Shown here one piece after another: positions 35,067 to 53,793 of a DNA stretch of 64,000 nt (within the stretch, counting starts at the first letter, position 1; each line of letters starts with the position of its first letter). Under the pieces are notes generated by a model. The model did not search any database. It saw only the letters and a list, made by a program, of their open reading frames with translations, and had not been told where the DNA came from. The position numbers and the translations under genes are program-made. The stretch is from Dinochytrium kinnereticum (taxonomy: Eukaryota > Chytridiomycota > Chytridiomycetes > Chytridiales > Chytridiaceae). The stretch is taken from contig JADGJT010000039.1 of the NCBI GenBank assembly GCA_027604005.1, forward strand, positions 1 through 64,000, written 5' to 3'.

Positions 35067-36269
35067 ATGATGATGCTCTACTCCGCAAGCAACTCCTCGC
35101 GCAAGGCATGCCGTCGCCCTATGCTGATGCTGGCAATGCTCCTGGTCGCCACCCTCTGCATCGTCGGCCGTCCCGTCGACGCCCTCCCAAAGAAGGCCGC
35201 CGCCATCTCCCCCGCCGCCGCTGCACCCGCCGCCCCCATCCAAGACGACATTGCAGCAACCATTGAGGAGGCCGCCGAGGCCGCCGTCTCGTCCTCTGCG
35301 AGGCTCGCCATTGCCGCCGACGCATCTGCTCCCACCGTCAATTCTGATGAAGTCTCTCCTTTGGACACTTCAGCCTACGCTGAGCAACTGAAGGCTGACT
35401 GGGCCACCATTCGATCCGCCATCACCACAATCCGAAAGGCTTCCTCGATGGGTGCGATTGACCCAGACACCGCCTTGGCGGCCCTGACTGCCATCTCTGA
35501 CCAGGTCAGCAAGCTGAACGAGAATGCTGCTTCCCTTGCCGAGGCCGATGAGGTTGTGAGCGATGCCAATGTTCTCAAACAGGTCAAGGCTGGGTTGGGC
35601 TGGATTGATGGTGTCAGCAAGAAGACGGCCAAGGAGCTTTCAAAGGTTGCTCCAAATGCGGTTGCCCCTGCTGCTGAAACGGGTGGGAACAACTTCTTGG
35701 GCCTCGGCAACCCACTCGACATTCTCAAAAAGGGGATTGATGCCGTCAAGAACATTGGAAAAGCCATCACGAACGTTGCCGCCAAGCCTGAAGTCAAGAA
35801 AGCCGCCAACGGTGTCGCGAATGTTGCTGAAAAAGTCGCCTCCATCTCGGACGTCATTGGCAATGTTCTTGGGGTCGTGGGATTGATTCCAGGAACTCAG
35901 GCTGTCACCGTTCCCGCCATTGGTATCGTGACGGCTGTCGGTGAGATCGCCAAGGTTGTTGACCAGATTGCACAGGGTGTCTCATCTGCCAGCGAGGCTG
36001 CTGCTGAGAGCCAAGCTGAGGAGACTGCATCTTCTCCTGCTCAGGAGGAAGCCGCTGCCACCGCTCAAGCCCCTGTTCAGGAGGAAGAGGTTGCTTCTCC
36101 AGCTCAGGAGGATGTTGTCGCCACTGCTGAGCAGGTGGCCAATGTCACCGAGGTTGAGGAAGTCCCCACCGCCACCTCTGATGCCATCACTTCGACCATC
36201 ACTGTCCAGCCCAAGAAGAAGGCCGGCAAGAGGTCCAAGAAGAACAAGATGGTCAGCACCGCCGCTTAA
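35067..36269 (+). CDS. Secreted helical protein, family member 1 (divergent, no Pro-rich tail)
   Basis: Intronless, 400 residues. N-terminal signal sequence ('MLMLAMLLVATLCIVG', cleavage near VDA-LP). The mature part is Ala/Val/Glu-rich and helical: 'DWATIRSAITTIRKAS', 'GLGWIDGVSKKTAKEL', 'LDILKKGIDAVKNIGKAI'. A hydrophobic segment 'DVIGNVLGVVGLIPGT' then 'VGEIAKVVDQIAQG' aligns by eye with the core of the three genes downstream ('EIAGTVLDVAGKVTGT', 'AGECAKIVESLAG'). It lacks the two cysteines of the others, the dibasic site after the signal peptide and the Pro-rich tail; it ends with a Glu/Ala-rich segment and a Lys-rich 'KKKAGKRSKKNK'. Function unknown. Membership rests on the core alignment and tandem position. 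Confidence 0.8.
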   Translation: MMMLYSASNSSRKACRRPMLMLAMLLVATLCIVGRPVDALPKKAAAISPAAAAPAAPIQDDIAATIEEAAEAAVSSSARLAIAADASAPTVNSDEVSPLDTSAYAEQLKADWATIRSAITTIRKASSMGAIDPDTALAALTAISDQVSKLNENAASLAEADEVVSDANVLKQVKAGLGWIDGVSKKTAKELSKVAPNAVAPAAETGGNNFLGLGNPLDILKKGIDAVKNIGKAITNVAAKPEVKKAANGVANVAEKVASISDVIGNVLGVVGLIPGTQAVTVPAIGIVTAVGEIAKVVDQIAQGVSSASEAAAESQAEETASSPAQEEAAATAQAPVQEEEVASPAQEDVVATAEQVANVTEVEEVPTATSDAITSTITVQPKKKAGKRSKKNKMVSTAA

Positions 36270-37324
36270 ATCATTTTTGTTTATTCTTCACAAGCAAACA
36301 CAAGACGTTCCATCAGCATTAGCTGATAACTATCTTCTATTTTTTTAATCGCAATCTCTACATGTACAATGTCACTTTTGTTTTATTCACCCTATTCAAT
36401 TATTTTTGGTCCAAGGACTTTGTGATCTTTACTTTGCTATGTATTGCGATTGATTAAGTCGCTTCCTTTTCTATTTTTTTTTTTTTTTTTTGTTATTGTC
36501 GTTGGTTGTGAGTGTAAGGTCCTGGATTATTATAGTAGTACAGCCAGCAGACCAATACTGACTCTTTCATCGATTTAAAATGTATGCAATAAAATGGCTG
36601 TGACTCTTATTATTATCCTGCCCAACACTACTTCTTCAACTTATTCCAGCAACCATATTTACCGACTGCCATGATAAGCGTATCCTGTTTCAAGAAGACT
36701 ATTATTATGGTCACTGGTCTATCAGTAGTAGCATGCTGGCATGAAACCTTCTCAAGATTCTGCCGTAATGTGTTGGAGTTTACACGGCGTCCACCGTCTC
36801 ATTCTCCTCCACTGCGCATGCGTGGCGTCCACCATCTCACCATTCCCTGCATGCACGCGACAGCACAGTTTGATAAGCCAATGGTGCATGCAGGCGCTAC
36901 AGCCACACTCTGTTTCATCATCACGCATTGACGGCCAAAGCCACAATTGATTCCAGCAGCAGCCGCTCTGCCCATGAGCACCAATAGCGTATGCAACGGA
37001 CCGCTCACCCGCGCAAATCAACCAGAAACAAGATGATGGAGAGCCTCAACCAACGCAACGAATGAAAGCTGCAGCGCACCTGCGGTTTCATTTTCTGTTT
37101 CGGGAATTTCATCGAATGTTTCAACCGGTCACGCAAATTGGAGAGCAACCAACCAGCCCAGTCAGGCAAGCAACAACGTGTCGGCGTCACGTCCGTCAAC
37201 TGAACGCGTATAAAAGGGAGACGGCCCCCTCAGCTGGACTCCCATCTCAGAACATCGCAACAACAACTTCAGCTCTTCTTAAATTGTACAGTATCCAGGC
37301 GCACAGCAGCAGAAAGAAACAAGA
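36270..37324. other. Intergenic region with short repeats; promoter of secreted-family member 2
   Basis: No gene supported. Contains two near-copies of GGCGTCCACC(G/A)TCTCA (36787 and 36824), GCATGC-containing palindromes, a 16-bp string CATGCTGGCATGAAAC (36732-36747) that recurs inverted upstream of member 3, and 'GGGAATTTCATCGAATGTTTC' -like sequence at about 37102 that resembles DNA upstream of member 4. Confidence 0.55.
37209..37214 (+). promoter_or_regulatory. TATA box of secreted-family member 2
   Basis: GCGTATAAAAGG context, 116 bp before the ATG. The same string precedes member 4 and a close version precedes member 3. Confidence 0.65.
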
Positions 37325-38989
37325 ATGCATCTCAAAACCCTCTTGCCACTCCTTCTGGCCCTCCATTCCGCCATCGCCATCCCCCTCCAACCCCAACGAT
37401 TGGAGAAACGCGAGATCTTTCAACCCAGCGGAGCGTCAACCGCCACCCCATCCGTCATTGACCCTCTTCCAACTCAAGACACCAACACCCTCGCTCAAGA
37501 ACAAGACGAGGAAGAGAATTCTGTCAACTTTGTCGATGACGAGGTTGACAATGCTGAGTTTGATGAGTCTTCTGACCCCGACACGGCGTTGAATGAAATC
37601 GGAGATAATAGCTTTGAGGTGGAGGAAGACGGTGAGGACGAGGCTGGTCCAGCCGAGTCTTCTGATGTCGGTCCAACCGAAACCTCCAACCCAGAACCCG
37701 TCTTGACCTCCACCGTCGTCCCAACGACAGCCCCGTCCGGAAACCCCAAACAAGAGCTCGACGCCTGCATCCGCAAGATCAAGTCCGGGGTTTCCAAGAT
37801 CCGTCAACGCGGCGCCAAGATCGACACCGCCATGGCCTCCAAAGCCTGGGCCGACATGAAAGCCAATGGAGGCTTCATGCAAACCCACGCCACGGCTCTC
37901 ATGTCCGCTGTCAAGGGAGCCAAAGTGAAGGGCCTCATGGGCCTAGTCATGAAACCCATTCAACTCGCCATGCCGATGCTCGGGGCCGCCATCAACACCA
38001 TCGCCCGGATCGAGGCGACCAAGCTCTCACTCCTGGTGGGCGCCGCCGCCAGCCCGGCAATGGCAGTCGCGGACATGGCGATGGCGGTTGTGAAAGTTTC
38101 CGAGATCGCTGGGACCGTTCTTGATGTTGCAGGAAAAGTGACTGGCACCAAGAGCATGATGGTGCCGATCTCGATGATGGTGAAGGTTGCCGGGGAGTGT
38201 GCGAAGATTGTGGAAAGCTTGGCGGGGAGCGTGAAGGTTTTGGCTGCGCGTGAGCCTGGCGGGAAGATGAAGAAGGAGAAGGAGGTTGAGCATCCCATGG
38301 GAATGCCGCCTGCTCCTGTCAAACCTCATCCCATGCCTCCTGCTCCAGTCAAGCCTTCACCCCCCACTCCCCCACCTCCAGTTCACCCTATGCCCGTCCC
38401 CCCCGTAAAGCCAGCTGCCCCCGTCAAACCCGCGAACCCACCCGCACACCCTATGCCAGCACCTCCCATCAAGCCAGCGCCCCCCCCTCCAGCAGCTCCA
38501 ATGCCTGTTCCCCCAGTTAAACCCGCGCCACCTGCTAAACCGGCTCCTCCTGCTCCTTACGTTAAGCCTGCACCTCCCGCACCTCCAGCTCATCCTATGC
38601 CTGCCCCACCTGTGAAGCCTGCTCCCCCAGTTCACCCAATGCCTGTTCCTCCCGTTAAACCCGCCCCACGACCCGTGCACCCAAAGCCTGTTCCTACCGT
38701 AAAGCCCGCCCCACCTCCCGTGCACCCCGCTCCTCCCGTCAAGCCAGCGCCTCCTCCCGTGCACCCCGCTCCTCCCGTCAAGCCGCCTGTTAAGCCTGCT
38801 CCTCCCGCGAAGCCCGCTCATCCTGTTAAGCCTGCTCCCCCCCCCGCCCATCCTATGCCTGCTCCACCTGCTAAGCCAGCGCCTGCTCCTCCTGCTCATC
38901 CCATGCCCGCTCCGCCCATGAAGCCCGTCCCGGCTCCCCCTGCGAAGCCTCAGTGGCCAGCAAAAGACTCCTATGGCTACACTTATTGA
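37325..38989 (+). CDS. Secreted protein with helical core and Pro-rich tail, family member 2
   Basis: Intronless, 554 residues. Order: signal peptide 'MHLKTLLPLLLALHSAIA', short propeptide, Kex2-type site RLEKR followed by EIFQPS; an acidic Ser/Thr/Glu-rich linker; the core from about residue 141 to 305; and a tail of about 240 residues built on PAPPAHPMPAPPVKP-like units. The core is amphipathic to hydrophobic with many Ala/Met/Val ('GLMGLVMKPIQLAMPMLGA', 'SPAMAVADMAMAVVKV') and has just two cysteines, C148 and C292, conserved in members 3 and 4 at about the same spacing. No known domain recognised. The tail resembles hydroxyproline-rich or adhesive wall proteins in composition only. Core DNA is about 99% identical to that of member 3 (see findings). 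Extracellular or wall location is inferred. Confidence 0.85.
   Translation: MHLKTLLPLLLALHSAIAIPLQPQRLEKREIFQPSGASTATPSVIDPLPTQDTNTLAQEQDEEENSVNFVDDEVDNAEFDESSDPDTALNEIGDNSFEVEEDGEDEAGPAESSDVGPTETSNPEPVLTSTVVPTTAPSGNPKQELDACIRKIKSGVSKIRQRGAKIDTAMASKAWADMKANGGFMQTHATALMSAVKGAKVKGLMGLVMKPIQLAMPMLGAAINTIARIEATKLSLLVGAAASPAMAVADMAMAVVKVSEIAGTVLDVAGKVTGTKSMMVPISMMVKVAGECAKIVESLAGSVKVLAAREPGGKMKKEKEVEHPMGMPPAPVKPHPMPPAPVKPSPPTPPPPVHPMPVPPVKPAAPVKPANPPAHPMPAPPIKPAPPPPAAPMPVPPVKPAPPAKPAPPAPYVKPAPPAPPAHPMPAPPVKPAPPVHPMPVPPVKPAPRPVHPKPVPTVKPAPPPVHPAPPVKPAPPPVHPAPPVKPPVKPAPPAKPAHPVKPAPPPAHPMPAPPAKPAPAPPAHPMPAPPMKPVPAPPAKPQWPAKDSYGYTY
38315..38965 (+). repeat. Degenerate Pro/Ala/Met/His/Lys repeat region in coding sequence
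   Basis: Imperfect repeats with units such as PPAHPMPAPP, PVKPAPP and PPVHPAPPVKP. Unit length varies and codons drift, so it is an old repeat still under length change. Confidence 0.85.
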
Positions 38990-40187
38990 TATGTGTGTGT
39001 AATCTAATATGTGTATACGATAATAAAGTGTAGTATGTATATAGTGTCAATCATCGCGTACTGTGGCAGTAATCGTTGTGAGAGGTTGATTTGGGAATGG
39101 TAGACGAGCCCCGCTGTTTGCGTGGTCAACGGGTCGTTTGACATTCACCATACCTAGTATTTTTCGATAACACTGACGCGTTCGAACCTTTTTCCTGAGC
39201 TTCAAATCATGTGGCTGACGCGTTACTCCCACTGAACTCGTTGATTGAAAGGCCCAACATCACATTTTGACGCAGAAAGTCGCCGCAAACGCCCTTTCAT
39301 ATCATAAATCCCCAGTGACAATATGATCCTCGAACCAGTTTGAAGGCCGTCATCATGACTGCAGGGGATCAATACTAAAGAGTTTGAGATAAACGTTCAA
39401 CCTGCATGATTAGGCTTATCTAAGCAGGGGTTCTTTCAGTGGTTTATCGATTAATGGGAGTTTATTCGTAAGTGCGCTTAGACATCGTAATGGCTGCAAA
39501 AAACTTAGGGTTACTCTGCACAAGGCGGTGTCGATTTGACCACATTGGATGCAATGCCACATTCATTAAAGGCGTGACCGCAACGCCGCTACACCGCAGC
39601 GAATAAGTGAAAGTCCTTTTGAAATGAATAAAGGCTGGAAAGCGCAAAGGTTAGCCCAAAAACTCTTTCCAGCGGCTACTTCTCGAACAAAAAAACTAAA
39701 GCCACATTCGATTTAACCCCTTCAAATGAACCAATAAATGATGGGGGTTCTATTAACAGCTGACCCAAACACACTTGGAGGTGAGGCGAGGCGAATGTAA
39801 GCGGGTTGATGGCGTATACGACAAACGTTCGCTGTCAAACACCTTGAACACGAATTAGACATCCCAGTAAAGCATTGACGAGCCGTTACGCCACTGCGGC
39901 CCGTAGAGTAAGGATATTAGGATAAACCTTAACGTTGAAAGCACTTCATCTCTTGTTTCATGCCAGCATGTTGTTTCCGACTTGCTGCAATGTGGCACAG
40001 GCACTTTAAATGAAAAAATGAACCAACTACACGTCCTTGCAGGTCCGAATTGCAGTCGAACCAGAGCCATTGAAAGTCTTAGAATAACACCACTTGGGCA
40101 TATAAAAGGCGGTGTAATCTTCTCCCCTTTTCCATATCCAAATTTCTCCACCCTCATTGCACGTAGCAAGTACCATCGTTTTTCCAA
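38990..40187. other. Intergenic region; promoter of secreted-family member 3
   Basis: About 1.2 kb with no supported gene. Contains GTTTCATGCCAGCATG (39955-39970), an inverted copy of a string upstream of member 2, and 'ATGTGGCACAGGC' (about 39990) shared with the region upstream of member 4. Confidence 0.55.
40101..40108 (+). promoter_or_regulatory. TATA box of secreted-family member 3
   Basis: TATAAAAG 87 bp before the ATG at 40188, followed by GCGG as part of a context similar to members 2 and 4. Confidence 0.65.
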
Positions 40188-41747
40188 ATGCACATCAAAA
40201 CCCTCCTCCCAATCCTCCTGGCACTCCAGGCAGTCACAGCTGTTCCAGTTGAAAGACGACTTCTCGAAAAACGAGCCATCCTTCAACCTGACCCATCAGC
40301 CACCGTTGACGCGTCCAACCCACCGCTTGGCCAATCCCCTTCGATGCAAGTCATGAGCAACATCCCTGCCGAGGTCGACGACGAGTTTGAAGACCCCACC
40401 CCTCCTCCCCCTATGAACGAGGTCGCGGCCTCAAAACCACCGGCCGTGGTCAAAAACCCCAAACAAGAACTCGACGCCTGCATCCGCAAGATCAAGTCCG
40501 GGGTTTCCAAGATCCGTCAACGCGGCGCCAAGATCGACACCGCCATGGCCTCCAAAGCCTGGGCCGACATGAAAGCCAATGGAGGCTTCATGCAAACCCA
40601 CGCCACGGCTCTCATGTCCGCTGTCAAGGGAGCCAAAGTGAAGGGCCTCATGGGCCTAGTCATGAAACCCATTCAACTCGCCATGCCGATGCTCGGGGCC
40701 GCCATCAACACCATCGCCCGGATCGAGGCGACCAAGCTCTCACTCCTGGTGGGCGCCGCCGCCAGCCCGGCAATGGCAGTCGCGGACATGGCGATGGCGG
40801 TTGTGAAAGTTTCCGAGATCGCTGGGACCGTTCTTGATGTTGCAGGAAAGGTGACTGGCACCAAGAGCATGATGGTGCCGATCTCGATGATGGTGAAGGT
40901 TGCCGGGGAGTGTGCGAAGATTGTGGAAAGTTTGGCGGGGAGCGTGAAGGTTTTGGCTGTGCGTGAGCCTGGGGGGAAGATAAAGAAGGAGGATGACCTT
41001 AAGTATAAGGATGATCATCAGAAGGACGACAAGAAGGATGGCAAAAAGGACGATAAAAAGGACGACAAAAAAGATGATAAGAAGGATAAGGATGACAAAA
41101 AAGGCGACAAGAAGGACGACAAGAAGGACGATAAGAAGGATGACAAAAAAGGCGATAAAAAAGACGACAAAAAAGGGGATAAGAAGGACGACAAGAAGGA
41201 CGACAAGAAGGATGACAAAAAAGACGACAAAAAGGACAACAAAAAGGACGACAAAAAGGACGACAAAAAAGGCGATAAGAAGGACAACAAGAAGGACGAC
41301 AAGAAGGACGACAAGAAGGATGACAAAAAGGACGACAAAAAAGATGATAAGAAGGATAAGGAAGACAAAAAAGGCGACAAGAAGGACGACAAAAAGGATG
41401 ATAAGAAGGACGACATGAAGGACGACAAAAACGGTGACAACAAGGATAAGGACGACAAAAAGAAGAACACCACTCTTATGCCTCCTGCCCCAGTCAAGCC
41501 AGCGCCTCCCCCTGCTTTCCCAGGGCACTCAATGCCTCAACCACCTGCTCACCCTATGCCCGCCCCCTCTCCTCCGATGAAGCCTGCTCCACCCGCTCCA
41601 GCCCCTCCGATCCACCCTATGCCAGCTCGTCCTGCTCATCCTATGCCTGCTCCACCTCCCAAACCTGCGCCTGCTCTTCCGGCTCATCCCATTCCCGCGC
41701 GTCCTGCCTGGCCGGCTCCTTGGGGTCATCCCAGCAACCGTCATTAA
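40188..41747 (+). CDS. Secreted protein with helical core and Lys/Asp-rich plus Pro-rich tail, family member 3
   Basis: Intronless, 519 residues. Signal peptide 'MHIKTLLPILLALQAVTA', Kex2-type site RLLEKR then AILQPDPS, a shorter linker, then the same core as member 2 (about residues 90-255, cysteines C98 and C242, 144 residues apart in both). After the core comes about 155 residues of KKDDKKDDKKGDKKD-type repeat, very highly charged, then a Pro-rich tail ('PAPPIHPMPARPAHPMP') shorter than in member 2. The family thus keeps the core and swaps the tail. Function unknown. The charged stretch could bind polyanions, metal ions or chitin-associated polymers; that is speculation. Promoter resembles its neighbours. 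Confidence 0.85.
   Translation: MHIKTLLPILLALQAVTAVPVERRLLEKRAILQPDPSATVDASNPPLGQSPSMQVMSNIPAEVDDEFEDPTPPPPMNEVAASKPPAVVKNPKQELDACIRKIKSGVSKIRQRGAKIDTAMASKAWADMKANGGFMQTHATALMSAVKGAKVKGLMGLVMKPIQLAMPMLGAAINTIARIEATKLSLLVGAAASPAMAVADMAMAVVKVSEIAGTVLDVAGKVTGTKSMMVPISMMVKVAGECAKIVESLAGSVKVLAVREPGGKIKKEDDLKYKDDHQKDDKKDGKKDDKKDDKKDDKKDKDDKKGDKKDDKKDDKKDDKKGDKKDDKKGDKKDDKKDDKKDDKKDDKKDNKKDDKKDDKKGDKKDNKKDDKKDDKKDDKKDDKKDDKKDKEDKKGDKKDDKKDDKKDDMKDDKNGDNKDKDDKKKNTTLMPPAPVKPAPPPAFPGHSMPQPPAHPMPAPSPPMKPAPPAPAPPIHPMPARPAHPMPAPPPKPAPALPAHPIPARPAWPAPWGHPSNRH
41004..41465 (+). repeat. 12-15 nt tandem repeat encoding DDKK units
   Basis: About 35 repeats built on GACGACAARAAR with GGC/GAT insertions (GDKK). 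Synonymous codon variation among units shows they are not freshly expanded everywhere. Its antisense frame codes a hydrophobic string by accident. Confidence 0.9.
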
Positions 41748-42576
41748 ACGCCATACATGTGTTTATGTACATAATTAAAATAAATTGTGTAAATACTGCA
41801 TTATTATTGTTTTACGTGTATCAGAAAGAAAAGGCGATTGAGATAACTCGAATGGTTGAGGAAAGCTACAAAACTTGAATATCTGCAAGACACTCCTGAA
41901 TGACTAAATCAATACATTTGGTGTGAAGAACGATCCTTTACCTTCATTGCGCTCACGCTCTTTTCTTTTTCCATTGGCCTGTATTGATCGTAGAATCCGC
42001 CACATCTTGTAAGCACTCGACACAAATCACTTAAGAACTATGTTCATCTTTCCTTTTTAATCTGATGGCGTACACGATGTCTTGATATTTGACCATTTTC
42101 ATTCATGCTGCGGGCAGTTAAATCCTTCCCAGTTTAGCTTAAACCAATGAACCAATTGAAACCACACCGTCTGTGCATCTGTTGTCGGGTCCTTGACGGC
42201 AACATGTTGATGCGTTCAGGCATTGAATCGCTTACATACATGTAAAGCCGCCGCCGCTCCGCTAATTGATGAGCTGTTGACCGCTGATTTCAGTCGTTTC
42301 GGGAATGATGAAGGAGCTAGACGAACCAGCAGCGTCCAGGATATGCACCCTGCTTTCATGATTTGTTTCAGTGTGTGTGAGCGGGATTTCATCCAACGTT
42401 TCAAACGATGTGGTGGTGTGGCACAGGCGAGGTCAAATGAAGAAATGCACCAACAAGACGATACGTCCACTCTCACTCGATGAATCAAATGCTCAGTTCA
42501 CGCGTATAAAAGGAGGCTTACTTTTGTGGTTCAGAAGCATCTCAGCATCTTACTTTACTTCGCATTAATCGCAAAC
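41748..42576. other. Intergenic region; promoter of secreted-family member 4
   Basis: About 830 bp without a supported gene. Holds 'GTGTGGCACAGGC' (about 42417), a 'ATTTCATCCAACGTTTCAAA' block (about 42385) related to the member 2 promoter, and the TATA box. Confidence 0.55.
42505..42510 (+). promoter_or_regulatory. TATA box of secreted-family member 4
   Basis: CGCGTATAAAAGG, 72 bp before the ATG at 42577; the same string as at member 2. Confidence 0.65.
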
Positions 42577-43986
42577 ATGCACATAAGAGCCCTCCTTCCA
42601 CTCCTATTGCTGGCCCCCAGAGCCATTGCAGCCCCTCTCCAAAGCATGCCTGTTACACTTCAAGAGCGTGCCGTATTCCAACTCCCTCCATCTGTCGTAT
42701 CCGACGCGTCTGCCCCTGCAGTCATCGACAATCTCCCCATTGGAGTGACAAAGCCGATGAAAGATCTCAACGACAACATGGACACCGTCAACAGGGTGAA
42801 TAGTGTCGACATCAACTCCGCCAACAGCCAGGTCGAAGAGCCCGTCACGCCCGTCACGCCCACTGAGGTACCACCTCCCATCGTGGACGCCAGGATAGAG
42901 CTTGATGCTTGCATGATCAAGATCAGGGCAGGAGTCACAATCATTCGACAACCCCAAGTCAAGGTCAACCCAGAGATCGCGAAACAGGCCTATGCAGACA
43001 TCAAGAGGAAAGCAGCCAGCGTTCAAGCTCACGCAACCCAATTGATGACGTTTGCGACGAGATCTAAATGGACTGGTGTGATGGCTTTGGCTATGAAGCC
43101 TATTCAAGTCGTCATGCCAGTGCTCCAAATGGCAATCAAGACAGCTGGCGCCGTTGAGTCCACCAAGCTTTCAATTATTAACGGCGTCGCTGGGGGTACT
43201 TTTGATGCGGTTGCTGGTGTGGCCGATACCGCTATGGCCGTCGTCAAGGTTTTGGACGCCGCCAAAAAGGTAGTTGATGTTATGGGAAAGGTGACTGGAT
43301 CAAAGAAGACGATGAAAGCCCCGGTCGCATTGATGCTTATGGCTGCAAAGGAGTGCGCAAAGATCGTGGAGAAGATGGCTGCAAGTGTCCAGGTGGTTCC
43401 AATCCATCCTCCGTATGCAGGAAAGCAAAAGCCTACTCTACAACCTTCTTCTGAACCTACCATGAAGCCGGCGCCTGCTCCTCCTGCTCACCCCATTCCT
43501 CCTCCTCCCGTGAAGCCGGTGCCTACTCCCCCCGCTCATCCCATGCCTGCCCCTCCTGCTCACCCCATTCCTCCTCCTCCCGTGAAGCCAGTGCCTGCTC
43601 CTCCCGCACACCCTATGCCAGCACCTCCTGCTCATGTGATGCCTGCCCCTCCCGCTCACCCTATGCCTGTCCCTCCTGCTCACCCCATTCCTCTTCCCGT
43701 GAAGCCGGTGCCTGCTCCTCCCGCTCATCCCATGCTTGTCCCTCCGGCTCACCCCATTCCTCTTCCCGTGAAGCCGGTGCCTGCTCCTCCCGCTCATCCC
43801 ATGCCTGCCCCTCCTGCTCACCCCGTACCTCCTCCTCCTGCTCATCCAATGCCTGCCCCTCCCGCTCACCCTATGCCGGCACCCCCTGCTCACCCTATGC
43901 CTGCCCCTCCTGCTCACCCCATTCCTCCTCCTCCCGCCAAGCCGGCGCCTGTACCTATAGCTCGTATTGAAAACTATTCTTACTAA
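42577..43986 (+). CDS. Secreted protein with helical core and Pro-rich tail, family member 4
   Basis: Intronless, 469 residues from the ATG that begins the signal peptide 'MHIRALLPLLLLAPRAIA'. Here the processing site is 'TLQER' before AVFQLPPS (single Arg, not Lys-Arg). The core is clearly homologous to members 2 and 3 but diverged: 'ELDACMIKIRAGVTIIRQ', 'HATQLMTFATRSKWTGVMAL', 'MKPIQVVMPVLQMAIK', 'AVAGVADTAMAVVKVLDA', 'KVTGSKKTMKAPVALM'. The two cysteines are kept (C112 and C260). The tail is about 180 residues of PAPPAHPMPAPPAHPIPPPP repeats. Function unknown; a secreted or wall-bound role is inferred. The divergence here compared with the near-identical cores of members 2 and 3 dates the conversion after the duplications. 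Confidence 0.85.
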   Translation: MHIRALLPLLLLAPRAIAAPLQSMPVTLQERAVFQLPPSVVSDASAPAVIDNLPIGVTKPMKDLNDNMDTVNRVNSVDINSANSQVEEPVTPVTPTEVPPPIVDARIELDACMIKIRAGVTIIRQPQVKVNPEIAKQAYADIKRKAASVQAHATQLMTFATRSKWTGVMALAMKPIQVVMPVLQMAIKTAGAVESTKLSIINGVAGGTFDAVAGVADTAMAVVKVLDAAKKVVDVMGKVTGSKKTMKAPVALMLMAAKECAKIVEKMAASVQVVPIHPPYAGKQKPTLQPSSEPTMKPAPAPPAHPIPPPPVKPVPTPPAHPMPAPPAHPIPPPPVKPVPAPPAHPMPAPPAHVMPAPPAHPMPVPPAHPIPLPVKPVPAPPAHPMLVPPAHPIPLPVKPVPAPPAHPMPAPPAHPVPPPPAHPMPAPPAHPMPAPPAHPMPAPPAHPIPPPPAKPAPVPIARIENYSY

Positions 43987-44082
43987 TTGAAAAAACAGAA
44001 AATGTATATAGTAGAGTGCTATAATCATGTAAATAAAAAAGCTACAGACAATAATGAAGCCATTGCACACAATAAGTCTTCT

Positions 44083-46092
44083 TCAAAACCCCTCCAGAAG
44101 TGCCTCACGTCCCAAATCCAAATTCATTGATGGGCTTGTTAAGAGAATCTTCACCATATCTGCATTCTGCATGTAGATACCAGCTGTCCTCAAAATAAGG
44201 TTGTTTTCTGCAGATAAATTCATATTCGAAACCTCTATCAAGGCCTTAACGATACCCGGATGTCCGCTATTGCAAGCTAAAGACATCATATAGGTCCCGA
44301 ACGCAGGCGGCGGAATCTCTAGGCCCGATACTCTTAGGAACAGCCTTAGAATCTCCTCTTTGCCATCCATAATCAAGCGATGAAAGATATTATTCATTGC
44401 TGAGGCGCCGCGAGCCATGCTTGAACACGTGGCCATATTGTTCAGAAGAACTCGAACAACTCCAGAAAAGTTAAGCTTACAGGCGAGATCAAGCGCATAA
44501 CAGAGTGCGGTCGCTGTAAATTGTGAATGATCAACAAGACGCTTCGCAAAGGAAGTATCGATGTTTCCCCACATGACGACTGCACTTCCATAAGCCTCAT
44601 CATTTAGAGTGGTTATAAAAGAGATGACGAGTTCGAACCATTCTGCATTTGACATCGACTTCCAATCAGGTACCGGCTTCGAGCTTGCGAATTCAGGAAT
44701 GTGTTTTTGGAACAGGCACTTGATGACGTCGAGATTTCCTTTTGCAAGAGCCGAATGTAAACAATTCAACACTATATTGGAACCCGTTCTGGCCTTGGAT
44801 AAAATCTGCTCCATGATGCCCAGCATTCCCATGTCAGCTGCTTTGATAGAAGCGCTTAGAAGTTGTTCAGGCGCGAAAGAGAAGTTTGGGTGCGAGAAGA
44901 GCTCCTGAAAAATGCTTTCGTTTCCCGTCAATATTGCGCTAACGAGTGCGTTGCCACGAAAATGGTAATTCACTCCATGGCTTTCCGGGATGAGTAGCTT
45001 GATGCATTCCAAACTTTTGCTTTCTATCGCCGAATTCAGAGGGTCTTTCACACGGTCACTGTCTCCAAAAATAGGGAATCTCCCGTCACTTATCAACATC
45101 TCTAAGGCGTTAGGGTGACCGGCTGCAGCATGACTCAGCATTTTTTGCTTTAGCTGATTCTCTAAATCATCCACCTTGGGATCTTTCAGAAGCTCAAACA
45201 GAAACTCAACATCGCCAACGACTGCGGTCTCCAAGATAACCCTCGAAAATAACGGAAGACTATCCATCTGATCATTCAGTGGGTAAAGCAGCTTCACAAG
45301 ATCCATGTTTTTAGTAGATAAGGCAGACCAAATCGCGGTTCTTTTGCAAGCCGCGATGGAGTCGAGGGGTTGGCGTGCGATGAGCAGTTTGACAACGTCA
45401 TTGCGATTACGTGAAGCCGCGAGCTTTAGCGCCTCATGTATACTAGATTCAATAACGAAATCCCCGAGGCTAAGAATGGTCTCAACGGCCTCCAAATGTC
45501 CTCTAGCACAAGCAGCCACCAATGCCTTTCCAATATGATCTGCCACGTCACCAGGAAAAGCGTTCCTCTGCGAAAACATGTCAGCCATATAGGAACTGCT
45601 TCCCAGAGCGGCCATCAATCGAAAATATTCAAATGAAAGCATCTCTCTTCGGGCCAACACCTCCAATGCGTCAATCATCAGAAATCGATGTGTCCTGCAA
45701 GGTGAATCGAGCGGTTTTTGGCCCCCACACAAGATTGCAATAGCATCCGTCTTCTCTCCAATCAATTTGATGCAGGCCGCAACGTAAACTGCCCCAAGGC
45801 CTTTCCAATTCTGTATCCCGAGAAGAGCAGGGTGAGAGAGGGACGTACGAAGATTGGCCAATGAGAAAGAGTAGGACGTGGTCAGGTTCTGCAAAGCGGC
45901 TCTTATACTTTTTGAAAGTAGCCGGAGCTCTAACATCTGATTTGGAGATATCCACACGAAGATCGAACGGGAGATGTCGGGAGGGAGGGTTTCAAGACAC
46001 GATGCTCTGGCCTCGCGTTGCGATGGGGACATGGAGGCAAGTGAAAGTTTTTTGGAAGGATGTGTTTTTGTTTGGGATGGATGAATGGGCAT
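44083..46092 (-). CDS. F-box protein with ankyrin-like repeats
   Basis: Intronless, 669 residues. Residues near 35-65 form an F-box-like segment ('LETLPPDISRSIFVWISPNQ', 'MLELRLLSKSIRAAL'). The rest is about twelve helical repeats in the ankyrin style, for example 'ALVAACARGHLEAVETILSL', 'ALKLAASRNRNDVVKLLI', 'SLACNSGHPGIVKALIEV', 'LHSALAKGNLDVIKCLF'. Many lack the TPLH core, so they are diverged ankyrin repeats. A role as a substrate adaptor of an SCF ubiquitin ligase is the usual reading, not shown here. Many fungi and chytrids have large, lineage-specific families of such genes. Converges with secreted-family member 4, 96 bp apart. Confidence 0.78.
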   Translation of the reverse strand: MPIHPSQTKTHPSKKLSLASMSPSQREARASCLETLPPDISRSIFVWISPNQMLELRLLSKSIRAALQNLTTSYSFSLANLRTSLSHPALLGIQNWKGLGAVYVAACIKLIGEKTDAIAILCGGQKPLDSPCRTHRFLMIDALEVLARREMLSFEYFRLMAALGSSSYMADMFSQRNAFPGDVADHIGKALVAACARGHLEAVETILSLGDFVIESSIHEALKLAASRNRNDVVKLLIARQPLDSIAACKRTAIWSALSTKNMDLVKLLYPLNDQMDSLPLFSRVILETAVVGDVEFLFELLKDPKVDDLENQLKQKMLSHAAAGHPNALEMLISDGRFPIFGDSDRVKDPLNSAIESKSLECIKLLIPESHGVNYHFRGNALVSAILTGNESIFQELFSHPNFSFAPEQLLSASIKAADMGMLGIMEQILSKARTGSNIVLNCLHSALAKGNLDVIKCLFQKHIPEFASSKPVPDWKSMSNAEWFELVISFITTLNDEAYGSAVVMWGNIDTSFAKRLVDHSQFTATALCYALDLACKLNFSGVVRVLLNNMATCSSMARGASAMNNIFHRLIMDGKEEILRLFLRVSGLEIPPPAFGTYMMSLACNSGHPGIVKALIEVSNMNLSAENNLILRTAGIYMQNADMVKILLTSPSMNLDLGREALLEGF

Positions 46093-46554: not shown

Positions 46555-49027
46555 CATGTCACTTTTCACATGGAGTGGCTCACGGAGGGTGCAAGCCCAA
46601 CGCCCCCGAGCACTCTACCTGGCGCTGGCCATGGCCGTCTCAGGTTCATCATTCTTGGGATGGCGATGGCACTCGTCTAAGACCAATCAGCCATCAGGCA
46701 GCAACCCCTCAAAGGTGAAAGGATGGCACTGGCCAACCTCTTTCCCCAAACGAATCTTTGCGGACCTGGATCCGAGGAGCGCTTTCAATCCGGCTCCTAA
46801 AAAGCCCCCAGAAGAATCTTCATCAGATATCGGAGAGTCAGCAGAACGAGCAAAGTTCATAGAGAGAGCGAGAAACATTATTCAAAAGCCTCTGGAGGAA
46901 TCGTGGCGGAATCTGCATCTGCCCGACCGTCTGCGTCTTCAGGAGTTTGTTCAGTCGATCCCGACTCGGATTGGACGTCCTGACCTGGCTGAAAAACTTT
47001 CAGAAGCTGCCGGGAAGGTTCCTTCCCCGGCCGAAGTGTCTAATCTTTTGAAGAAGCTCTTAACCGCCGAGGAGTTGAAGGCCCTCACAGCTAAGGTTGT
47101 GGCAGAGGCTACCAGTAGGGCGTTGGATATGGTGTTTGAAGGTCGGCTTGTCAAGAGGATCAGATATGAGATGAATGATCCTGTAAAGCATCCTGAAATT
47201 GAAATGGAAGCTAGCGTTAGATTGGGCACGGATTTGTCGGAGGATGAGAAGGAGTTCACCACCAAGCGTCGTGTGATTGTTGCGAAGGCTATATCGGGAC
47301 TACTTGAAGAGTATGTTGACCCTGCTGATGTCCCTATTATTGGAATTGCAGCAAGGTAAGGAAATTGTTGCCTTAATAAGCCTAACATCGCTTAAGCGGT
47401 GGAGGATGTCGGGCCATGGTTCAAACCCTTGGTGGAATCCAATCTCTCGACGACATTGGAATTCTAGACGCTTGTACATATATGGCGGGAGTGTCCGGAT
47501 CAACGTGGGCCATGGCACAGCTTTACGGTGTTGAAAAAAGCCCCAAAAGTGCGTTGAACCATACCAAATGGGCACTATCAAGAAACCTTATGAATCCCAT
47601 TGACTTTTTCGATTCATTCACGGGGCCAATGAGCGAACTTGTTCTGACAGGCGCTGTGTATCGGTTTCATTCCCCTCCCCTGCTCAAGTCGCTTGGCATT
47701 GTGGATCTTTTTGGCGTTCTCTTGACTTCGAAGTTCTTAGTTCCGGAGATTGCTATCAGCTCGGGAGCTTCACCTCTTGAAGTGCGGGAAGTGGTTGCAT
47801 CAACTCTCTCGCAACAGAAGGCTATAGTTATGGACCAGGTGCTTCCGTTTCCTATTTATACTGCTGTTACGAGGGTCCTTTCTCAAGAGGCGAAGCTACG
47901 CGGTGACCTATATCAATGGATGGAATTCACTCCATTTGAGGTATTATTTCCACGAAAAAATCTTCCTTAACGCAAGCAGATTGGTATGGTTTCCCATAGC
48001 TATCCTAACGAAGGTTTCTGGATTCCTTCATGGTAAAGTGTTCTGTGCATTGTTGTTTATCATTATTTTTTTTGTACAAATTTTCCATCATATCTAATGT
48101 TCTCATAAAAGGTCTTTTGGTCGAACGTTTGAGGGAGGAATGGCCAAAGATAAACTACCAGAGACAGAAATAGGGATACTTTTAGGAGTCTTTGGTTCGG
48201 CATTCTCTGCAGACTTTTTAAGAATCATGGATGAAGTCGAAAACATTGTCTCCGAAGACGCCCGGGCCAAACTCAAGTCACTCCTGAGAGAACGGCTCGT
48301 ATGTTTTGCTCATATCATTCTTGATTTTTTTCTTTTTTTTCTTTTTTTGTGGGAACCTGCCTGTGGCTGATTATCCCAATCTATAGGAGATCCATCCAAT
48401 CGCCCCTGCTCGTTTTGCCAATCCGATTTATGGACTTGAAGGCGTTAATGACCCTATCCACAAGATTACTTCCATTCAAGTGATGGATTCAGGTAACGTA
48501 ACGAGACAAAGCCTAGCATCTGAAACAGTGGTTCTGCTTTAGGAATGGACAACAGTATTCCGTTCGCCCCTCTTTTACGAAAAGAGCGCGAAATCGATAT
48601 TGTCATCGTTCTAGACGGCTCAAGCGGGATCGGGTCACATCCATTCCTGTCAAAAGCGGAAAGCTTTGCTGCTCGACGTTCAGTAACTCTACCCCTACCA
48701 CACGGCGTAAAAGGCCCCTGCGTGGTCTCGGTTCCACTGATATCAAATCATGAGGCTAAGGAATATAGCGGGCCTACTGGCGTGGTTTACGTTCCTCTTG
48801 TTCATAATGCGACCTTTGAAGATGGAAGGTTTGACCCGGCAAGTGAGGCATTCACGGCCACCCACAATTTTTTCTGGACAGAGGAACAGGTTGAAAGGGT
48901 AGCGTCTTTGGCAGGACATAATTTGAAGAGCGTTAAGGGTGATTTGAAAGAATTGATAAGGAGGGTGGTTCAGGAGAAGAGGAAGAAGAGGTTGGAGGCG
49001 CTGATTGAAGACGACGTAGAGCGGTGA
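46555..49027 (+). CDS. cPLA2/lysophospholipase-like lipase (patatin-fold)
   Basis: About six exons; the first intron is only 41 nt (47356-47396) and splits the glycine-rich loop 'GIAASGGGCRAMVQTLGG'. Seen in order: a hydrophobic N-terminal segment ('RALYLALAMAVSGSSFLGW'), a helical region, the oxyanion loop SGGGCRA, the nucleophile elbow 'AGVSGSTWAMAQLY' (Ser), 'WMEFTPFE', 'YPNEGFWIPSWSFGRTFEGG', and the Asp motif 'MDSGMDNSIPFAPLLR' followed by 'REIDIVIVLDGSSG'. This is the Ser-Asp dyad arrangement of group IV phospholipase A2 and fungal phospholipase B relatives. No C2 domain is seen. The N-terminal segment could be a signal anchor or organelle targeting sequence, so it probably acts on membranes. 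Substrate not readable. Confidence 0.87.
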
Positions 49028-51935: not shown

Positions 51936-53793
51936 ATGCATGCCCTCGTGTCACGTGATTCTTTGTTTTTTTCGAGCAAATTGATGGCGTCGCTCACAAT
52001 CCGACCCTCTCAGCTGCGCTCCCGATGCGCCCTCCTCTCCATCCCAACGCCCCACCGCTACACCACCGCCACCACCGCCCCTCTCCAACCCCCACCCGCC
52101 CCAAAGCGCACCTTCCCCCGCACAATCCTCTCGGGGATCCAACCCACTGGGATCCCGCATCTGGGTAACTACCTGGGGGCCTTGTCGAATTGGAAGAAAC
52201 TCCAGGACGATGTTGCGGATGGGACTGGGGGAAGGCATGATAAAGTGATTTATAGTATTGTTGATTTGCATGCGGTGACTGTGCCGCAGGATCCGGGGAA
52301 TTTGAGGAGGAATGTGGTGGATATGGCGGTTGCCTTGTTGGCTTGTGGGATTGACCCGGGGAAGAGTGTTTTGTTTAGGCAGTCTAAGGTGAGGGGAGGG
52401 CGGGGTGTTTTTTTGTTTGTTTGTTTTTTTTTTTNNNNNNNNNNNNNNNNNNNNNNNNNNNNNNNNNNNNNNNNNNNNNNNNNNNNNNNNNNNNNNNNNN
52501 NNNNNNNNNNNNNNNNNNNNNNNNNNNNNNNNNNNNNNNNNNNNNNNNNNNNNNNNNNNNNNNNNNNNNNNNNNNNNNNNNNNNNNNNNNNNNNNNNNNN
52601 NNNNNNNNNNNNNNNNNNNNNNNNNNNNNNNNNNNNNNNNNNNNNNNNNNNNNNNNNNNNNNNNNNNNNNNNNNNNNNNNNNNNNNNNNNNNNNNNNNNN
52701 NNNNNNNNNNNNNNNNNNNNNNNNNNNNNNNNNNNNNNNNNNNNNNNNNNNNNNNNNNNNNNNNNNNNNNNNNNNNNNNNNNNNNNNNNNNNNNNNNNNN
52801 NNNNNNNNNNNNNNNNNNNNNNNNNNNNNNNNNNNNNNNNNNNNNNNNNNNNNNNNNNNNNNNNNNNNNNNNNNNNNNNNNNNNNNNNNNNNNNNNNNNN
52901 NNNNNNNNNNNNNNNNNNNNNNNNNNNNNNNNNNNNNNNNNNNNNNNNNNNNNNNNNNNNNNNNNNNNNNNNNNNNNNNNNNNNNNNNNNNNNNNNNNNN
53001 NNNNNNNNNNNNNNNNNNNNNNNNNNNNNNNNNNNNNNNNNNNNNNNNNNNNNNNNNNNNNNNNNNNNNNNNNNNNNNNNNNNNNNNNNNNNNNNNNNNN
53101 NNNNNNNNNNNNNNNNNNNNNNNNNNNNNNNNNNNNNNNNNNNNNNNNNNNNNNNNNNNNNNNNNNNNNNNNNNNNNNNNNNNNNNNNNNNNNNNNNNNN
53201 NNNNNNNNNNNNNNNNNNNNNNNNNNNNNNNNNNNNNNNNNNNNNNNNNNNNNNNNNNNNNNNNNNNNNNNNNNNNNNNNNNNNNNNNNNNNNNNNNNNN
53301 NNNNNNNNNNNNAAAAAAAAAAAAAAAAAAAAAAGCCTCAGAGAGCGCCAAAAAGATCATGTCCCTCCGCGTCCCCACCTCCAAAATGTCCAAATCCGAT
53401 CCATCCGACGCCTCCCGCATAAACCTCGACGACACCCCTGACTCAATCCGTCTCAAGATCCGTAAATCCGTTGTGGACTCCCATCGCGGTATCACCTACG
53501 ACCCAACCAACCGACCCGGGGTGGCGAACCTTTTGCGTATTTACACTGCAATGGGTGGAGGAGGGGATGAGGAAATGGCTGCGAGGGAGATGGCTGAGCT
53601 TGGGAATTTAGAGTTTAAGGAGAGGGTTGCTGAGAGGGTTGTTGAGGGGTTAAAGGGGGTAAGGGGGGAGATTTTGAGGTTGAGGGCTGATAAGGGGTTT
53701 GTGGAGAAGGTGTTGGAGGAGGGGGAGGAGAGGGCGAGGGAGATTGCGGGGAGGACTATGAGGGATGTTAATAGGGTGATTGGGTTTAGATGA
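51936..53793 (+). CDS. Tryptophanyl-tRNA synthetase, mitochondrial type (interrupted by assembly gap)
   Basis: Exon 1 (to 52388) holds a Ser/Arg-rich, acid-poor N-terminus suited to mitochondrial import (a second Met at 51984 starts '[14 protein letters not shown]'), then '[20 protein letters not shown]' with the HIGH-type motif (HLGN), '[14 protein letters not shown]' and '[12 protein letters not shown]'. Then a donor, T-rich DNA and 878 N. After the gap an acceptor (about 53341) opens '[20 protein letters not shown]' with KMSKS, '[15 protein letters not shown]' and a C-terminus ending 'VNRVIGFR'. This is the class I TrpRS order with about half the middle lost in the gap. It charges mitochondrial tRNA-Trp. 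Frames that run through the N region are artefacts. Third-position G bias is strong in the final exon. Confidence 0.9.
52435..53312. other. Assembly gap (878 N)
   Basis: Unknown sequence, bounded by T-tract on the left (from about 52420) and 22 A on the right (53313-53334). It removes the middle of the tRNA synthetase. Whether the flanking homopolymers are real or the cause of the break is not known. Confidence 0.99.

What the first reader, a model, noticed from the sequence alone, without database searches (positions are those of the whole stretch)
35067..43986. Tandem family of secreted proteins with an unrecognised helical core and interchangeable low-complexity tails
Four intronless genes in a row encode proteins with a signal peptide, a helical core of about 150-170 residues rich in Ala, Val, Met and Gly, and tails that differ completely (Pro/Ala/Met/His in members 2 and 4, DDKK repeats then Pro-rich in member 3, Glu/Ala then Lys-rich in member 1). 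Members 2-4 carry an Arg or Lys-Arg site just after the signal peptide followed by a shared (I/V)(F/L)Q(P/L) motif, which suggests processing to a mature N-terminus. I do not recognise the core. The modular tail swapping on one core looks like a surface or extracellular material system, or a secreted interaction family. This is the best candidate here for an undescribed system.
Basis: partly seen in the sequence, partly recalled or inferred. Interest (0 to 1): 0.85.

Follow-up and report, generated by a model that had tools for sequence, protein, structure and literature searches.

The report
Fungal secreted helix-bundle gene array
Four neighbouring genes in an aquatic (chytrid-type) fungus encode secreted-looking proteins that share one unrecognised helical domain, and two of the genes have recently copied just that domain from one another while the rest of each protein kept changing, which suggests an undescribed, probably abundant, extracellular material rather than a known enzyme.

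Summary
The four intronless ORFs are one family; searches of the 22.4 Mb assembly found no fifth copy. The core has no significant Pfam, NCBIfam or PDB-sequence match. The only outside relative found is a Chytridium lagenaria hypothetical protein, an evident orthologue of member 1 (64% over 209 columns). Members 2-4 look like lineage-specific derivatives: smaller core, two cysteines, Pro-rich tail. AlphaFold models member 2's core as a five-helix bundle (pLDDT 79.5), resembling apolipophorin-III and pectin-methylesterase inhibitors only within helical-bundle background.

(1) Tails are not completely different: members 2, 3 and 4 share one Pro-rich tail, not convincingly found elsewhere in the genome; member 3 has a DDKK block inserted. 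(2) Missed: members 2 and 3 are 98.9% identical over 538 bp that coincide with the folded core (1 of 100 fourfold sites differ), against 13 of 20 before it and 31 of 49 in the tail. That is domain-limited gene conversion. Codon bias suggests high expression.

Most likely an abundant secreted wall, mucilage or adhesive-type family (about 0.4, inferred); lipid- or membrane-active and interaction roles remain possible.

The parts
35067..36269 (+). M1: secreted-type protein, 400 aa (377 aa in the protein database's version, i.e. starting at the Met at window 35136); core about residues 98-305, two helical inserts relative to M2-M4, acidic then Lys-rich tail
   Evidence: relative P0003 64% identical over 209 columns
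37325..38989 (+). M2: signal-type N-terminus, LEKR processing-like site, acidic linker, core residues about 140-305, Pro/Ala/Lys/Val/His/Met tail ending YGYTY
40188..41747 (+). M3: same plan, core residues about 90-255, DDKK repeat block, then a Pro-rich tail homologous to those of M2 and M4
42577..43986 (+). M4: same plan, core residues about 104-273, Pro/Ala/His/Met tail ending NYSY
37741..38278 (+). M2 copy of the gene-conversion tract (538 bp, 6 mismatches to M3; 380 bp exact at 37757-38136); the predicted bundle, residues 141-301, lies inside it
40454..40991 (+). M3 copy of the gene-conversion tract
41020..41446 (+). 12-bp tandem repeat encoding the DDKK block of M3
41484..41720 (+). Pro-rich tail of M3 matching that of M4
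38522..38953 (+). Pro-rich tail of M2 matching that of M4
43396..43983 (+). Pro-rich tail of M4 (24/48/72-bp repeats)

Best explanation
A small chytrid-lineage family of secreted proteins in one tandem array, most likely abundant components of an extracellular coat (cell wall, cyst coat, mucilage or adhesive). Shown by computation: a gene (M1) with an orthologue-like relative in Chytridium lagenaria; three further copies (M2-M4) with a compact core (predicted five-helix bundle for M2), two cysteines and one shared Pro-rich tail; near-identity of M2 and M3 confined to the core, best explained by gene conversion; codon bias towards that of histones. Inferred: M1 is closest to the founder; after signal-peptide removal a Kex2-type protease cuts behind LEKR / LQER; helices 1 and 5 are joined by a disulphide; the nearly Ser/Thr-free Pro-rich tail forms a stiff extended rod that embeds in or binds wall or mucilage polymers, with the DDKK block of M3 acting as a hydrated polyampholyte spacer; the bundle is the shared functional or packing unit, kept alike by gene conversion while linkers and tails drift.
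For: ORFs and alignment; no fifth copy found in the genome; relative P0003; fourfold sites that differ between M2 and M3: signal region 6 of 11, linker 7 of 9, core 1 of 100, Pro tail 31 of 49, Fisher p 1e-11 and 3e-18; five-helix model of the M2 core, pLDDT 79.5, pTM 0.75; exactly two cysteines in each of M2-M4, at equivalent core positions 148/292, 98/242, 112/260, which fall in helices 1 and 5 of the M2 model; tails hold 5 of 249, 5 of 264 and 6 of 196 Ser/Thr in M2-M4; codon bias with histone reference M1 z +9.6, M2 +6.7, M3 +6.2, M4 +5.7 against -2.0 to +1.4 for 14 window ORFs; held-out actin exon +3.0 and mitochondrial EF-Tu piece +4.9.
Against: No expression, proteomic or localisation data. 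No wall-binding domain and no hydrophobic C-terminus of GPI type, so retention in a wall is assumed. Cores alone score lower on codon bias (histone reference: M2 +2.7, M4 +2.6, M1 +6.4), and with an 85-codon actin-only reference M1 core is +0.7 and M4 core -0.8, while background reaches +2.0; that reference also fails two of five histone pieces. The M1 core is not confidently modelled (pLDDT 59), so a shared fold of M1 and M2-M4 rests on sequence. The cysteine distance was not measured. M4's site is ER, not dibasic.
Confidence: 0.4

Rival explanations
1. Lipid- or interface-active helical protein working like an exchangeable apolipoprotein or a foam/surfactant protein: the bundle opens at hydrophobic surfaces (air-water, lipid, cuticle), the tail keeps it soluble.
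Confidence: 0.2
2. Secreted interaction proteins (effector-like) acting on algae, other microbes or a host, diversified by duplication.
For: Narrow distribution, secreted type, tandem, fast-diverging linkers (dN 0.58-0.82 among M2-M4 on uncertain linker alignments, against 0.40 for the M2/M4 and M3/M4 cores), Kex2-like site.
Against: High codon adaptation and recent homogenisation of the core favour a conserved bulk role over escape from recognition; synonymous sites are saturated or nearly so, so positive selection was not testable; M1 has a relative in another genus.
Confidence: 0.2
3. Membrane-inserting helical protein: a hydrophobic helical hairpin near the C-end of the core (clearest in M1, about residues 257-298) inserts into target or own membranes.
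For: M1 hairpin with 19-residue mean hydropathy 1.71 and 1.73 on either side of a Pro-Gly turn.
Against: Core windows of M2-M4 peak at 1.10-1.61 and carry charges; no Pfam match to any pore-former; weak structure model for M1.
Confidence: 0.1
4. Assembly or annotation artefact: the M2/M3 core identity is a collapsed repeat, or the ORFs are repeats read as genes.
For: A 538-bp near-identical repeat 2.7 kb apart is hard for short reads; the protein database holds M1 and M4 of this contig but returned no M2 or M3 (in one search their lengths were outside the range searched, inside it).
Against: Six mismatches within the tract; codon bias, long open frames and a relative of M1 support real genes. 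A chimeric join could swap the M2 and M3 tails but could not create a near-identical core.
Confidence: 0.06

Closest known systems
Chytridium lagenaria hypothetical protein BC829DRAFT_385630 (P0003)
   Same: Core 64% identical to M1 over 209 columns, hydrophobic N-terminus, Lys/Arg-rich C-terminal segment
   Different: Three N-terminal repeats of the DAxDFxDIQ type not evident in M1; no Pro-rich tail of the M2-M4 kind; no M2-M4 type relative was returned for that species
Apolipophorin-III / exchangeable apolipoproteins (1aep, 1eq1)
   Same: Five-helix bundle of similar size
   Different: No Pfam match; two cysteines and long tails here; fold similarity within helical background
Pectin methylesterase inhibitor fold (1x8z)
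   Different: No Pfam match; two cysteines rather than the conserved set of that family (set recalled)
Fungal FLO/ALS-type adhesins (recalled, from no call)
   Same: Folded domain plus tandem-repeat low-complexity stalk
   Different: Stalk here is Pro-rich and nearly free of Ser/Thr; no GPI-type C-terminus; helical, not beta, domain

Membership tests
Exchangeable apolipoprotein (apolipophorin-III) | Sequence match to the family model (PF07464, accession recalled) | tested here: not met
   Not among Pfam-A rows listed up to E 10 (HMMER filters drop most weak matches)
Exchangeable apolipoprotein (apolipophorin-III) | Five long amphipathic helices in an up-down bundle | tested here: inconclusive
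Exchangeable apolipoprotein (apolipophorin-III) | Lipid-induced opening | not testable with these tools
   needs purified protein
Pectin methylesterase inhibitor family | Family model match (PF04043, recalled) and its conserved cysteine set (recalled) | tested here: not met
   No such Pfam row; two cysteines in M2-M4, and in M1 only residues 15 and 31, at or before the signal segment
Pectin methylesterase inhibitor family | Four-helix bundle fold | tested here: inconclusive
Hydrophobin | Eight cysteines in a set pattern (recalled) | tested here: not met
   Two cysteines each
FLO/ALS-type GPI adhesin | Ser/Thr-rich stalk (recalled) | tested here: not met
   16 Ser/Thr in 709 tail residues of M2-M4; M1's tail has 21 in 95
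FLO/ALS-type GPI adhesin | Hydrophobic C-terminal GPI signal (recalled) | tested here: not met
   Tail ends as printed; none of the top four hydropathy windows of any member is C-terminal. No GPI predictor was available
Family of C. lagenaria BC829DRAFT_385630 | Homologous core | tested here: met
   M1: 64% over 209 columns. M2-M4 only by way of M1 and a profile that contained M1; direct blastp E 0.31 and 0.18

The most novel reading that the evidence does not exclude
A new building block for an aquatic fungal extracellular material: an apolipophorin-like, interface-active helical bundle fused to stiff Pro-rich rods, in which the genome edits the material by copying the folded cassette between neighbouring genes (gene conversion bounded by the domain) while polymer tails evolve separately.
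Probability: 0.15. Interest if true: 0.7.

Novelty: new variant of a known kind. Interest (0 to 1): 0.43.

Why it matters
Chytrid zoospores and cysts must stick to surfaces, yet the proteins involved are poorly known (general knowledge, not searched exhaustively). A small, four-gene, probably well expressed secreted family with a relative in another genus is a testable candidate. It is also a clean natural example of concerted evolution confined to a folded domain: the conversion tract (M2 residues about 139-318) brackets the predicted bundle (141-301), while synonymous sites on both sides are close to saturation.

Tried and rejected
Pfam, NCBIfam and PDB sequence searches gave only rows below cut-off or at E 0.03 or worse (none): for example SKA1, HemX, HcgC, Lyase_8_N, designed helical proteins; taken as helical or compositional chance. 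BFVD fold search: no row at E 0.001 or better. Foldseek PDB: none at E 0.001 or better. The M1 model (pLDDT 59) was not searched for folds.

'Interchangeable tails' rejected. Positive selection not pursued: synonymous divergence is saturated or near it outside the M2/M3 core (pS 0.61-0.75, the one lower value being 0.49 in a 22-codon signal-region alignment of M1 and M2). Protein-level selection alone as the reason for core identity rejected: fourfold sites are identical too (1 of 100 differ).

A search with window 43455-43970 used the wrong frame and is discarded; one search replaces it. The species was not identified: the 18S searches failed. Eight paper searches (only listings seen, plus passages of PMC12115818 and of PMC9926174) showed no description of this family in what was listed; papers outside the library were not searched.
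Full report
What is there. Four uninterrupted ORFs lie in a row on the + strand: M1 35067-36269 (400 aa), M2 37325-38989 (554), M3 40188-41747 (519), M4 42577-43986 (469). M2-M4 align with each other (best blastp E 7e-36 to 7e-108); M1 aligns weakly with M2 and M3 (E 3e-7 to 1e-5) and hardly with M4 (0.03-0.06). Six-frame searches of the 22.4 Mb, 558-contig assembly that holds the window found no other copy: an M4 query gave 4 rows (M4, M3 and M2 in two pieces; 4 of 4 candidates scored), the M2 core 4 rows (M2, M3, M4, M1; 4 scored), the M1 core 4 rows (M1, M2 twice, M3; 6 scored), every row inside the array. The method scores only the best candidates and ignores introns, so very diverged or split copies could be missed; a profile search of this genome was not possible.

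Relatives. Three searches of 5.8 billion proteins gave, outside the window, one protein: P0003, a hypothetical protein of Chytridium lagenaria (lineage). Searches scored only the roughly 8,000 candidates sharing most words, and each search is limited in length. P0003's core is 64% identical to M1 over 209 columns, and it ends in a similar Lys/Arg-rich segment. Direct blastp between P0003 and M2 or M4 is weak (E 0.31 and 0.18); the link runs through M1 and a profile that contained M1 (E 1.2e-33). The database returned window proteins for M1 and M4 but not M2 or M3, so its gene models are incomplete for such genes, and how many chytrid proteomes it holds was not checked: absence elsewhere is weak evidence.

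Anatomy. M2-M4: hydrophobic start, then LEKR|EIFQP, LEKR|AILQP, LQER|AVFQL, an acidic or Pro-rich linker, a core of about 166-170 residues, and a tail. M2 and M3 have the dibasic KR; M4 has ER. M2-M4 hold exactly two cysteines each, at equivalent core positions, which fall in helices 1 and 5 of the M2 model; M1 has two, both at or before its signal segment. M1 and P0003 have two extra stretches in the core. The Pro-rich tail is shared by M2, M3 and M4: an M4-tail query found M2 (E 2.5e-7), M3 (E 0.048) and one row on contig C339 at E 0.048 with 31% identity and three stops inside, taken as chance. The M3 match is no better than that row by E-value; it is accepted for its 65% identity, open frame and place, and because blastn matches M2 and M3 tails at 78% over 123 bp. 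M3 has a DDKK expansion of 12-bp units at 41020-41446 in front.

Gene conversion. M2 and M3 are 98.9% identical over 538 bp, six mismatches at 37756, 38137, 38218, 38247, 38260 and 38269, with 380 bp exact. On both sides the alignment collapses. Fourfold-degenerate sites that differ: signal region 6 of 11, linker 7 of 9, core 1 of 100, Pro tail 31 of 49; Fisher p 1e-11 (core against signal plus linker) and 3e-18 (core against tail). M4's core differs from M2 and from M3 at 29 of 41 fourfold sites each, so it took no part. The tract (residues about 139-318) brackets the predicted bundle (141-301). A plain reason for the bounds may be that only the core was alike enough to pair. Direction of copying is unknown. 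Caveat: assembly collapse could inflate identity, and a chimeric join inside the tract could swap M2 and M3 tails.

Structure. With a five-sequence alignment, AlphaFold2 gave the M2 core pLDDT 79.5, pTM 0.75, helices 12-30, 39-69, 75-102, 115-140, 147-172 plus a short one at 105-110. The M1 core model is weak (pLDDT 59) and was not searched. Foldseek against PDB: none at E 0.001 or better; first row apolipophorin-III (E 0.08). VIA-align: pectin methylesterase inhibitor 10.8, apolipophorin-III 10.5, talin R4 10.3, a designed bundle 10.0; these are tied and under the tool's caution of about 13 for helical bundles. So: a helical bundle, no family assignment. No solved chain matched significantly by sequence (none; best E 0.44) and no Pfam or NCBIfam family reached its cut-off.

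Expression proxy. With histone codons as reference and 14 window ORFs as background, M1-M4 score z +9.6, +6.7, +6.2, +5.7; background -2.0 to +1.4 (centred near zero by construction, as the same ORFs supply the expectation); held-out actin exon +3.0 and mitochondrial EF-Tu piece +4.9. Parts alone are lower: M1 core +6.4, M2 core +2.7, M4 core +2.6, M3 N-part +2.0. With a mixed histone-plus-actin reference the 11 M segments (overlapping) lie at +2.8 to +12.9 and 11 window ORFs at -1.4 to +2.2. With an 85-codon actin reference whole genes score +1.9 to +4.5, but M1 core +0.7 and M4 core -0.8, background reaches +2.0, and two of five histone pieces are below +1. Reading: likely well expressed, not proven; the repetitive tails add to the whole-gene scores.

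Reading. High expression, secretion, a stable bundle and long, Ser/Thr-poor Pro-rich or polyampholyte tails fit a bulk extracellular protein better than a trace effector. Lipid or interface activity is the main alternative and would give the Met/Ala-rich helices a purpose. All functional steps are inference.

Noticed in passing
44083-46092 (-): Ankyrin-repeat protein of 669 aa with an F-box-like start (Ank_2 E 1.9e-30; F-box below its cut-off), convergent with M4, 96 bp between the two stop codons.
   Followed up: partly
47386-47967 (+): Open frame matching the lysophospholipase catalytic domain PLA2_B (E 9.8e-15), probably an exon of a neighbouring gene.
   Followed up: no
52435-53312: Run of 878 N (assembly gap or withheld stretch) downstream of an ORF matching class I W/Y tRNA synthetase; it explains the several long open frames listed there.
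   Followed up: partly
P0003 residues about 56-200: The Chytridium lagenaria relative has three N-terminal repeats of the type LDAxDFxDIQxTIxAxYPGN, absent or degenerate in M1.
   Followed up: no
M2 and M4 C-termini (about 38970-38989 and 43972-43986): M2 ends SYGYTY and M4 NYSY, with 3 of 4 and 2 of 4 of their tyrosines in these ends; possible cross-linking sites.
   Followed up: no
40993-41418 (+), 41018-41416 (-), 38357-38899 (-), 43438-44028 (-): Long alternative-frame and antisense ORFs over the tails, most simply by-products of the tandem repeats.
   Followed up: no
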